Below, one piece after another: positions 27,288-36,426 of a DNA stretch of 47,004 bases (its first letter is position 1; each line of letters starts with the position of its first letter). The translations under genes were made by a program, and so were the position numbers. Under the pieces are notes generated by a model, which saw nothing but the letters and a program-made list of their open reading frames with translations, was not told the DNA's origin and ran no database searches. The stretch comes from an uncultured Lachnospiraceae bacterium (GTDB taxonomy: Bacteria; Bacillota; Clostridia; Lachnospirales; Lachnospiraceae): the NCBI GenBank assembly GCA_900317585.1, contig ONHG01000021.1:1-47004 (forward strand), read 5' to 3'.

Positions 27288-27292
27288 GAGAA

Positions 27293-27364
27293 GCCGATAA
27301 CCGGGATCGAACCGGTGGCCTACGCATTACGAGTGCGTCGCTCTACCTACTGAGCCATATCGGC
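27293..27364 (-). tRNA. tRNA-Thr (anticodon CGU)
   Basis: On the minus strand a full cloverleaf of 72 nt is seen: acceptor stem GCCGATA/TATCGGC, D arm GCTCAGTAGGTAGAGC, anticodon stem ACGCA/TGCGT with loop CTCGTAA (anticodon CGT), and T arm CCGGTTCGATCCCGG. CCA is not encoded (TTC follows). It reads ACG codons. No integrated element sits at its 3' end. Confidence 0.97.
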
Positions 27365-33489: not shown

Positions 33490-33554
33490 TTTAATGTCAA
33501 AGTATAGTGTATGACATGGTCGAAGAAATTCTAGAAGATAGGGAGATTAGAGTA

Positions 33555-34646
33555 ATGAGTGAAAAGCTTAAAGTAGGTATCCTCGGTGGAACAGGAATGG
33601 TAGGACAGAGATTTATTTCTCTTTTAGAGAATCATCCATGGTTCGAGGTAACAACAATTGCAGCCAGCCCAAGAAGTGCAGGCAAGACATACGAGGACGC
33701 CGTTGGTGATAGATGGAAAATGGACACACCAATGCCTGAGGCAGTTAAGAAAATCATCGTAAAGAACGTCAATGAGGTGGAAGAGGTTGCTTCACAGGTT
33801 GACTTCGTATTCTCAGCCGTTGATATGTCAAAGGACGAGATCAAGAAGATCGAGGAGGACTACGCAAAGACAGAGACTCCTGTAGTTTCAAACAATAGTG
33901 CCCACAGATGGACACCTGATGTGCCAATGGTTGTACCTGAAATCAACCCACAGCACATGGAGGTTATCAAATATCAGAAGGAGCGTCTCGGTACAAAGAG
34001 AGGCTTCGTAGCAGTAAAGCCAAACTGCTCAATCCAGTCATATGCTCCGGTTCTTACAGCATGGAAAGAGTTTGAGCCATATGAGGTTGTTGCTACAACA
34101 TATCAGGCAATCTCAGGTGCCGGAAAGACATTCAAGGACTGGCCTGAGATGGTTGGAAACATTATTCCATTCATCGGTGGAGAGGAAGAGAAATCTGAGA
34201 AAGAGCCACTTCGTCTCTGGGGATATGTGGATGATGAGAAGAAACAGATTGTTCCTGCAGAGTCACCGGTTATCACATGCCAGTGTATCCGTGTTCCTGT
34301 ATTAAACGGTCATACAGCAGCTGTATTTGTCAAGTTCAAAAAGAACCCTACAAAGGAGCAGCTCATCGAGGCACTCGAGAAGTTCAGCGGAGTACCACAG
34401 GAGCTTGGGCTTCCAAGCGCACCAAAGCAGTTCATCAGATACTGTGAAGAGGATAATCGTCCTCAGGTTGCACTTGATGTGGATTATGAGCATGGTATGG
34501 GAATCAATGTCGGACGTCTCAGAGAGGATACAGTCTATGACTGGAAGTTCGTCGGACTCTCACACAACACAGTACGTGGTGCAGCAGGTGGAGCAGTGCT
34601 TTGTGCAGAGCTTCTTAAGGCACAGGGTTACATCACAAAGAAGTAG
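33555..34646 (+). CDS. asd: Aspartate-semialdehyde dehydrogenase, archaeal/fungal type
   Basis: The start at 33555 (MSEKLKVGIL) is chosen because GGGAG at 33541-33545 lies 9 bp upstream and the earlier ATG at 33507 would add an unrelated 16 residues. The 363-aa enzyme reduces aspartyl phosphate to aspartate semialdehyde for lysine, threonine and methionine. Motifs are GGTGMVGQR (nucleotide binding), SNNSAHRW, KPNCSIQS (catalytic Cys158) and YQAISGAGKTF. These, and the long insert around IIPFIGGEEEKSEKEPLRL, match the archaeal/fungal subgroup rather than the E. coli type. No linked dap or thr genes. Confidence 0.95.
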   Translation: MSEKLKVGILGGTGMVGQRFISLLENHPWFEVTTIAASPRSAGKTYEDAVGDRWKMDTPMPEAVKKIIVKNVNEVEEVASQVDFVFSAVDMSKDEIKKIEEDYAKTETPVVSNNSAHRWTPDVPMVVPEINPQHMEVIKYQKERLGTKRGFVAVKPNCSIQSYAPVLTAWKEFEPYEVVATTYQAISGAGKTFKDWPEMVGNIIPFIGGEEEKSEKEPLRLWGYVDDEKKQIVPAESPVITCQCIRVPVLNGHTAAVFVKFKKNPTKEQLIEALEKFSGVPQELGLPSAPKQFIRYCEEDNRPQVALDVDYEHGMGINVGRLREDTVYDWKFVGLSHNTVRGAAGGAVLCAELLKAQGYITKK

Positions 34647-34682: not shown

Positions 34683-34900
34683 GGATTTTCCGTTTGTGGG
34701 CTGTGGGCACCGGTGTAGCACACAGTAGTATTCCTCAGAAAAAATATGAAGTCAGCCACGGGATTTTTCCCGGACAGGCTATGGCAGCTTGCAGGTATAT
34801 GTGGTCATTTGACCTATTGGAAACCCGTGGCAGTTCATATTTTTTCTTCGGAACATACTGTGTACTCTCCGGTGAAGGTAGTGTATTGAACGGAAAATCC
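34683..34900 (+). ncRNA. Candidate structured RNA: 218-bp long imperfect hairpin
   Basis: The element folds almost end to end. Outer stem: GGATTTTCCGTT (34683-34694) with AACGGAAAATCC (34889-34900), 12 perfect pairs. Then an internal loop of 13 nt (34695-34707) against 14 nt (34875-34888). Then CACCGG/CCGGTG (34708-34713, 34869-34874), ACACAGTA/TACTGTGT (34720-34727, 34856-34863), a 14-bp AGAAAAAATATGAA stem (34737-34750, 34834-34847) and CCACGGG/CCCGTGG (34756-34762, 34824-34830), capped by a loop of about 60 nt. A terminator follows at 34930 and the next gene has its own promoter, so a separate transcript or a 3' end of the asd mRNA is likely. The closing stem, central bubble and long stem recall 6S RNA; a foldback mobile element is the main alternative. 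It also fills most of the 415-bp gap between asd and the MATE gene. Confidence 0.55.
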
Positions 34901-34929: not shown

Positions 34930-34955
34930 GAGTCCCTTAAAGGGGACTCTTTTTT
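34930..34955 (+). terminator. Intrinsic terminator behind the long hairpin
   Basis: GAGTCCC (34930-34936) pairs with GGGACTC (34943-34949), followed by six T. It ends the asd and/or hairpin transcript before the MATE promoter. Confidence 0.85.
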
Positions 34956-35061: not shown

Positions 35062-36426
35062 GTGAAGAATAATAAGTATGAAATTGATATGGTTAACGGT
35101 TCAATAATGGATAAGCTTATTTCATTTGCGTTGCCACTTATGATTTCAGGTATTTTACAGTTAGCGTTTAATGCGGTGGATATTATTGTCGTGGGACAGT
35201 TTAGTGGCAGCAAATCACTTGCGGCGGTTGGCTCTACTACGGCACTTATCAATGTGTTTGTCAATCTGTTTATGGGTATATCGCTTGGTGCGAATGTGCT
35301 CGCTGCCAGATTTTATGCGGCAGGCAAGGATGAGGAGATGTCTAAGACGGTGCACACCGCTATTATGATTGCGCTCATAAGCGGTGTTGTGATGGGTGTG
35401 GTCGGTGTTATTTTTGCAAGGGGTGCGCTGGAAATCATGGGTACACCGGATGATGTCATAGGTCTTTCTACTATTTATATGAGGATTTATTTTTGCGGTA
35501 TGCCGTTTTTTATGCTTTATAACTATGGCGCGGCGATTTTGCGTGCTGTCGGCGATACAAAGAGACCGCTTATCTTTTTGATTATTTCAGGCTGTATCAA
35601 TGCACTGCTCAATCTGTTTTTTGTAATAGTGTGCAAACTGGGTGTTGCAGGTGTTGCAATCGGTACAATTGTTTCGCAGTTTGTATCCTGTGTGCTTGTA
35701 TTATACTGTCTGAGCAAAGCAGATACCAGCTATAAGCTCTGCTTTAATAAGCTTGCGATTGATAAGGAATATATGCTTCAGATATTTCAGGTGGGAATCC
35801 CGGCCGGCATACAGAGCACAGTTATAAATATCTCAAATGCCATGCTTCAGTCATCAGTCAATTCCTTTGGCTCAATAGCCATGGCTGGATATACGGCGGC
35901 AAACAATATACTTGGCTTTTTGTATGTATCTGTCAACTCAATCACACAGGCCTGCATGAGCTTCACGAGCCAGAACTATGCGGTAGGAAAACAAAAGAGA
36001 ATGGACAGGGTACTGATAGACTGTCTGTTTCTCACGACAGCGGTAGCACTTGTGATGGGAAGTGCTTCATACATATTTGGAACACAGATACTTGGCATAT
36101 ATACAAGTAATAGCGAGGTAATTAAATCAGGACTTGAGATTATTTCGATTACAACAATCCCATATTTCCTCTGTGGAATCATGGACCTTTTTCCGGGAGC
36201 ACTAAGAGGAATGGGATACTCAACAGTACCTATGATACTTTCTATAATAGGAACAGTCGGAGTCAGAATCATCTGGATATATGGTCTGTTTCCAAGCCAC
36301 AGGTCGTTGTTTTTCCTGTTTATATCATATCCCGGTTCGTGGATAGCGACAATCATCATGCAGGTTATCTGCTATATGTTTGTCAGAAATAAAGTGAAAG
36401 CTACAATAGGAGCTCGCAAATTATAA
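35062..36426 (+). CDS. MATE family multidrug efflux protein
   Basis: A 454-aa protein with about twelve hydrophobic helices in two homologous halves, the MATE/NorM layout. It probably exports cationic compounds against Na+ or H+. The N-terminal MVNGSIMDKLISFALPLMIS, the VGQFSGSKSLAAVG segment in helix 2 and the matching second-half region (AMAGYTAANNILGF) identify the family; LRGMGYSTVPM near the end is typical of the DinF/Clostridial group. Start is GTG at 35062 behind GAGGTAG; the substrate cannot be told. Confidence 0.93.
   Translation: MKNNKYEIDMVNGSIMDKLISFALPLMISGILQLAFNAVDIIVVGQFSGSKSLAAVGSTTALINVFVNLFMGISLGANVLAARFYAAGKDEEMSKTVHTAIMIALISGVVMGVVGVIFARGALEIMGTPDDVIGLSTIYMRIYFCGMPFFMLYNYGAAILRAVGDTKRPLIFLIISGCINALLNLFFVIVCKLGVAGVAIGTIVSQFVSCVLVLYCLSKADTSYKLCFNKLAIDKEYMLQIFQVGIPAGIQSTVINISNAMLQSSVNSFGSIAMAGYTAANNILGFLYVSVNSITQACMSFTSQNYAVGKQKRMDRVLIDCLFLTTAVALVMGSASYIFGTQILGIYTSNSEVIKSGLEIISITTIPYFLCGIMDLFPGALRGMGYSTVPMILSIIGTVGVRIIWIYGLFPSHRSLFFLFISYPGSWIATIIMQVICYMFVRNKVKATIGARKL

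What the first reader, a model, noticed from the sequence alone, without database searches (positions are those of the whole stretch)
34683..34900. Long, bubble-containing hairpin between asd and MATE: candidate new or 6S-like RNA
The 218-bp region folds on itself with stems of 12, 6, 8, 14 and 7 bp in register, broken by a 13/14-nt central internal loop. It codes for no credible protein, is followed by a strong terminator and stands between units with their own promoters. The closing stem, open central bubble and long upper stem are the general shape of 6S RNA, which binds RNA polymerase. The alternative is a foldback (MITE-like) element. I have not compared the sequence with any 6S family.
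Basis: partly seen in the sequence, partly recalled or inferred. Interest (0 to 1): 0.75.

Follow-up and report, generated by a model that had tools for sequence, protein, structure and literature searches.

The report
Dispersed foldback DNA repeat in Agathobacter
The long hairpin between two genes is one of about fifteen scattered copies of a repeated, self-complementary DNA element, not a 6S-like RNA gene; its arms keep matching as DNA while unpaired motifs are conserved, which suggests a small passenger mobile element whose carrier enzyme is unknown.

Summary
The hairpin is real and far beyond chance. It is not 6S RNA: no Rfam family matches, and this genome has one 6S RNA match elsewhere. 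The 218 bp are one of 15 full copies found in this genome; a covariance search found 87 places in 8 of 62 genus genomes, and only the window's own genome scored among 90 drawn from the family. Different genomes, and subfamilies inside one genome, use different stem sequences but keep the same fold and similar unpaired motifs. Across 33 copies, 96.3% of stem cells pair, with 156 two-sided changes. Pairing is almost purely Watson-Crick: 4 G-U of 475 pairs, against 16.6% in 6S RNAs of 24 genus genomes. That points to constraint on folded DNA rather than RNA. The copies examined lie between genes in both orientations; three loss cases are irregular deletions; no target duplication was seen. The Y1 transposase thought to move REPINs is undetected in 6 of 8 carrier genomes. 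I read it as a new family of non-autonomous foldback elements, probably recognised as folded single-stranded DNA by an unidentified enzyme. The mobility mechanism is inferred, not shown.

The parts
34683..34900 (+). the foldback element (this copy); orientation + defined by the asymmetric unpaired motifs
   Evidence: folds; repeat family
34683..34694 (+). outer arm, 5' side (stem I, GGATTTTCCGTT); sequence differs from copy to copy but pairs with its partner in most copies
   Evidence: pair table; complementary block of 12 nt, shuffles at most 9
34889..34900 (+). outer arm, 3' side (AACGGAAAATCC)
34720..34862 (+). conserved core found by the genus-wide covariance model R2
   Evidence: 127.3 bits
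34743..34750 (+). stem III, 5' side (columns 25-32 of alignment A4)
34834..34841 (+). stem III, 3' side
34751..34754 (+). unpaired GTCA (GTYW in most copies); faces 2 nt on the other side
   Evidence: alignments
34832..34833 (+). unpaired AG, the 2-nt side of the asymmetric internal loop
   Evidence: alignments
34755..34761 (+). stem IV, 5' side
34825..34831 (+). stem IV, 3' side
34771..34777 (+). apical motif, CGGATAG type (CGGACAG here)
   Evidence: alignments
34816..34824 (+). apical motif on the opposite side, ATGGAAC type (ATTGGAAAC here)
   Evidence: alignments
34930..34949 (+). terminator-like hairpin with T tail downstream of the element; probably ends the asd transcript (not part of the repeat)
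33507..34646 (+). asd, aspartate-semialdehyde dehydrogenase (flanking gene)
35062..36426 (+). MATE-family transporter (flanking gene)

Best explanation
Shown: many dispersed copies; arms that stay Watson-Crick complementary while their sequence changes; unpaired motifs (GTYW facing WG in most copies; a CGGATAG-type and an ATGGAAC- or TGAG-type side of the apical loop) shared by subfamilies with different stems. Inferred: when one DNA strand is exposed (replication, repair), the element folds and a trans-acting enzyme recognises the hairpin by its asymmetric unpaired bases, copying or moving it within the genome; the element carries no enzyme of its own. Also inferred: copies downstream of genes, such as this one 36 bp after asd, are transcribed as part of the 3' untranslated region and put a long hairpin there.
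For: Multi-copy: 15 full copies in the window's genome; 87 places in 8 of 62 genus genomes (90 rows, 3 reverse-strand echoes removed by hand). Lineage-specific families: by DNA comparison 2 of 40 genomes matched, the window's own and one close relative, although two others of those 40 (G005, G010) carry divergent members by model. Covariation: 33 of the 87 places, 25 distinct stem III/IV sequences, 96.3% of 493 cells paired, covariation 0.802 against 0.192 in shuffles and 0.094-0.155 when slid. DNA-like pairing: G-U 4 of 475 standard pairs against 7 A-C mismatches; no G-U in stems I, III and IV, as I delimited them, of the 18 copies in A2; 6S control 174 of 1051 G-U. Between orthologues the arms differ at 40/1375 sites, the 60-bp flanks at 81/994. 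No clear orientation preference: 19 of 34 copies have a gene end and 15 of 34 a gene start on the element's 5' side. A plasmid of Agathobacter rectalis carries two places.
Against: No transposition event was seen. At least 12 of 15 copies are shared at the same place with the close relative G015 (9 pairs, 3), so movement is slow or old. The three absence or partial-copy cases aligned are irregular deletions, not clean empty sites. No target-site duplication was seen by eye in the flanks. No mobilising enzyme was found. Over the whole RNAalifold structure of A2, G-U is 3.3% (27 of 816), all with G on the 5' side, which would favour one RNA strand; 12 of the 27 lie in two outer pairs that I think are poorly aligned. 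The arms diverge no less than the wider, mostly coding surroundings (740/24733), and their slower change than the near flanks could also reflect an RNA role. The two shuffle measures that count pairs or pair types were not exceeded (180/500 and 154/500).
Confidence: 0.6

Rival explanations
1. A new structured RNA class: each copy is transcribed, alone or within an mRNA, and works as an RNA hairpin whose unpaired motifs bind a protein; spread is secondary.
For: Conserved internal-loop motifs within rapidly changing stems; arms more conserved than near flanks between orthologues; 27 G-U in one sense and none in the other in A2; the window copy sits between asd and a terminator-like hairpin.
Against: Almost no G-U in the best-aligned stems while 6S RNAs of 24 genus genomes have 16.6%; A-C mismatches at least as common as G-U in A4; no clear orientation preference; patchy distribution, 8 of 62 genomes; copies lost in part in sister genomes.
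Confidence: 0.2
2. A classical MITE: terminal inverted repeats recognised as double-stranded DNA by a DDE transposase encoded elsewhere.
For: Small, non-coding, dispersed, inverted ends (GGGCTGCCC...GGGCAGCC in many G472 copies; GGCTTCGCGC...GCGCGAAGC in several copies of the window's family).
Against: No target duplication seen by eye; outer ends differ from copy to copy although they pair, which is odd for a fixed transposase end; conserved asymmetric unpaired bases have no role in this scheme.
Confidence: 0.15
3. A passive palindrome: arms are kept identical by template switching during replication, and copy number reflects old duplications.
For: Nearly pure Watson-Crick arms; complementarity reaching into copy-specific sequence, e.g. 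18 nt in L144 and 20 nt in L111; tandem copies at two places in G015 where one G000 copy is known (G000 is incomplete).
Against: Template switching should also erase the asymmetric loops, yet these are kept across subfamilies; does not explain 27 places in G472.
Confidence: 0.05

Closest known systems
REPINs (REP doublets forming hairpins) with RAYT/TnpAREP transposases
   Same: Small dispersed extragenic hairpins with common compensatory changes, proposed to move in trans as ssDNA hairpins (PMC3116915, passages seen); in E. coli REP a stem bulge is required for TnpAREP activity and recognition is strand-specific (PMC8266576, passages seen).
   Different: Longer (217 bp or more; REPIN size of about 100 bp is recalled); no Y1 transposase found in 6 of 8 carrier genomes, including the single-contig G015; stems turn over between subfamilies while loop motifs persist.
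ERIC / Correia (NEMIS) type bacterial MITEs
   Same: About 100-200 bp repeats without a protein whose transcripts form long stem-loops and can affect neighbouring mRNAs (PMC2229807, passages seen).
   Different: Four of the six table rows fully visible to me in that review mark target duplications (two are marked '?'); none was seen here. Different host lineage; no direct sequence comparison with those families was made.
Integron attC sites
   Same: Folded single strand recognised through unpaired bases rather than stem sequence (recalled; the passages of PMC8266576 name IntI among proteins acting on folded ssDNA).
   Different: No cassette array noticed in the loci read; no integrase search made; much longer hairpin.
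6S RNA (RF00013)
   Same: Long hairpin with an internal bubble; similar length.
   Different: No covariance match; multi-copy; the genome's one RF00013 match lies elsewhere.

Membership tests
6S RNA (RF00013) | Match to the family covariance model | tested here: not met
   Only a tRNA in the window at gathering thresholds; no 6S among five weak matches at E<=10
6S RNA (RF00013) | Single dedicated gene, no better candidate in the genome | tested here: not met
   G000:C25:27713-27897 is the one RF00013 match in G000; the element has 15 full copies
6S RNA (RF00013) | Binds RNA polymerase holoenzyme and templates pRNA | not testable with these tools
   needs biochemistry
REPIN/RAYT | Dispersed extragenic hairpin with compensatory changes | tested here: met
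REPIN/RAYT | Cognate Y1 (HUH) transposase in the genome | tested here: not met
   PF01797 undetected in G000, G015, G010, G071, G005, G070; 1 match in G472 and 3 in G042, one with a stop inside. Draft genomes may hide a copy; G015 is one contig
REPIN/RAYT | GTAG or CGTC tag beside the palindrome | not tested
   no systematic scan was made
MITE (classical) | Small non-coding element with terminal inverted repeats in many copies | tested here: met
   outer complementary block longer than every shuffle in 11 of 24 copies, equal to the longest in 6, shorter in 7
MITE (classical) | Target-site duplication | tested here: inconclusive
   none visible by eye in G472 flanks; no clean empty site available
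MITE (classical) | Related autonomous transposon with the same ends | not tested
Integron attC | Recombined by IntI, arrayed gene cassettes | not tested
   no integrase search made

The most novel reading that the evidence does not exclude
A new kind of mobile repeat recognised as a folded single DNA strand: stems are free to change as long as they pair as DNA, identity lies in unpaired motifs, and it is spread in the genus by an enzyme that is not a Y1 transposase.
Probability: 0.3. Interest if true: 0.75.

Novelty: new variant of a known kind. Interest (0 to 1): 0.5.

Why it matters
It shows that strong covariation does not by itself prove a structured RNA: the near absence of G-U pairs may separate folded DNA from RNA and could serve as a filter in RNA discovery. 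If the elements move as folded single strands without a Y1 transposase, a recombination enzyme remains to be found in gut bacteria (one carrier record is from a human faecal isolate), and the palindromic copies would explain some genome variation and mRNA 3' ends there.

Tried and rejected
6S or other Rfam RNA: rejected for the window; 11 other carrier loci had no Rfam match. Autonomous parent sought through half copies: the ORFs of L088-L092 were listed and no transposase was obvious by eye from their first residues; no domain search was made on them. Empty-site analysis: L004 against G015, L017 against G000, and the plasmid locus against G000 gave irregular partial deletions, so boundaries could not be proven. 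RAYT-type mobiliser: not supported. Spread outside the genus: the pattern scan of genome contigs gave 6 stretches with one match each in other bacteria, about what chance predicts (my estimate, about 8), and near relatives may be left out of that scan; viral contigs 0; phage records no match; plasmids one Agathobacter rectalis record (same record); a G472 copy had no plasmid match. The family-wide search with R2 scored only 8 candidates per genome and is insensitive; R3 scored 35 per genome. Literature: the listings showed no title or abstract start that names this repeat, and searches listed nothing; the library is open-access only and the listed papers were not read apart from passages of three. 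ORFs near copies in G472, G071, G070 and G010 were listed but not identified.

Full report
Observation. The 218 bases at 34683-34900 fold into one long, interrupted hairpin, far beyond chance on either strand and as RNA or DNA (0 of 200 shuffles in each). It lies 36 bp after the asd stop codon and before a terminator-like hairpin at 34930-34949; MATE follows.

It is a repeat. A DNA search of the window's own genome gave 23 matching stretches, some being partial copies or the same copy read on the other strand. Covariance models give 15 full copies. Among 40 relatives only the window's genome and one close relative, G015, matched by DNA. A plasmid of A. rectalis DFI.5.28 carries two places, one of which I read.

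It is a family. Model R1, from 20 copies, scored in 4 of 60 genomes, two of them (G042, G010) new. Model R2, from 19 copies of four genomes, gave 90 rows in 8 of 62 genus genomes; after removing 3 reverse-strand echoes there are 87 places: G000 15, G015 15, G042 10, G010 10, G071 8, G472 27 (one cut by a contig end), G005 1, G070 1. Outside the genus, R3 scored in 1 of 90 family genomes, the window's own; a less sensitive R2 search scored in 1 of 397, likewise the own genome.

Structure and motifs. Alignment A4 holds 33 of the 87 places, chosen for diversity, with 25 distinct stem III/IV sequences. Of 493 cells, 96.3% pair; 156 cells changed on both sides (154 by my own script); the covariation score is 0.802, against 0.192 in shuffles and 0.094-0.155 when partners are slid. 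The counts of pairs with two-sided change and of pair types did not exceed shuffles (180/500 and 154/500). The stems were placed by hand on conserved columns. Unpaired motifs persist while stems change: GTYW facing WG in most copies, a CGGATAG-type motif and an ATGGAAC-type or TGAG-type motif, each with exceptions. In G472, subfamilies with different stems share GGATAGTTGGCTGAG in the apex, with one or two changes in L144 and L151.

DNA rather than RNA. In A4 only 4 of 475 standard pairs are G-U, while A-C mismatches number 7. In stems I, III and IV, as I delimited them, of A2 there is no G-U among 471 Watson-Crick cells, against 4 A-C. A2 holds 18 of the 20 copies then in hand; L014 and L018 were left out because their outer 3' arm did not align (in L014 no pairing arm was found). 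Over the whole A2 structure there are 27 G-U of 816, all 5'G-3'U. The control is 6S RNAs of 24 genomes of the same genus, of 55 with a match: 30 loci were returned, I left out one and dropped five cut by contig ends. They have 174 G-U of 1051 (16.6%), with a structure predicted by RNAalifold. The two counts are therefore not made in exactly the same way. Among the orthologous and sister pairs compared, one-sided changes at pairs involve G-U and A-C about equally by my reading. I read this as constraint on folded DNA.

Evolution. In 9 orthologous G000/G015 pairs (of 12 known), arms differ at 40 of 1375 sites, the apex at 37 of 569, the 60-bp flanks at 81 of 994 and the wider, mostly coding surroundings at 740 of 24733. 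Three further shared sites were checked by flank comparison. One G000 copy is mostly deleted in G015, one G015 copy is half deleted in G000, and a full plasmid copy is internally deleted in G000. Two G000 copies (C15:59972, C34:38547) were not compared. G015 has tandem pairs at two places (2994553/2994793 and 1465788/1466017) where one G000 copy each is known.

Context. Of 34 copies examined, 19 have a gene end and 15 a gene start on the element's 5' side (mechanical ORF calls, some of them probably spurious, and approximate element ends outside the window's family). No fixed orientation to genes is seen. Outer arms were tested in 24 copies: the longest complementary block exceeded every shuffle in 11, equalled the longest in 6 and was shorter in 7; it reached 18 nt in L144 and 20 nt in L111. 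Either the element enters existing hairpins or flanks are copied in inverted form.

Mechanism. I think a trans-acting enzyme recognises the folded single strand by its unpaired, asymmetric bases. This parallels REPINs, where compensatory changes are common (PMC3116915, passages), and E. coli REP, where a stem bulge is required for TnpAREP activity (PMC8266576, passages). A Y1 transposase was undetected in 6 of 8 carriers, so membership is not claimed. Effects on mRNA, as proposed for ERIC and Correia elements (PMC2229807, passages), are plausible but untested here.

Verdict. An ordinary-looking intergenic hairpin is a copy of an apparently unnamed foldback family (searches, listings only). The 6S reading is rejected; the foldback reading is supported with the mobility step unproven.

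Noticed in passing
L051 about 1980-2310, L054, L052 about 2030-2360, L056 about 1826-2153, L059 about 1725-1966 (genome G042): A second, palindrome-rich dispersed repeat (GATACC/GGTATC motifs) follows several copies of the hairpin in G042.
   Followed up: partly
G472 loci L133-L138, L151: Two subfamilies of the element often lie as inverted pairs about 100-500 bp apart, in most cases each bounded by GGGCTGCCC...GGGCAGCC.
   Followed up: partly
L017 about 1276-1320: Another short (about 45 bp) repeat with many matches in the window's genome.
   Followed up: no
loci: The 5' end of the element often looks closer to a coding region than its 3' end, whether a gene ends or begins there; not tested statistically.
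   Followed up: no
window 27292-27364: tRNA gene on the minus strand.
   Followed up: no
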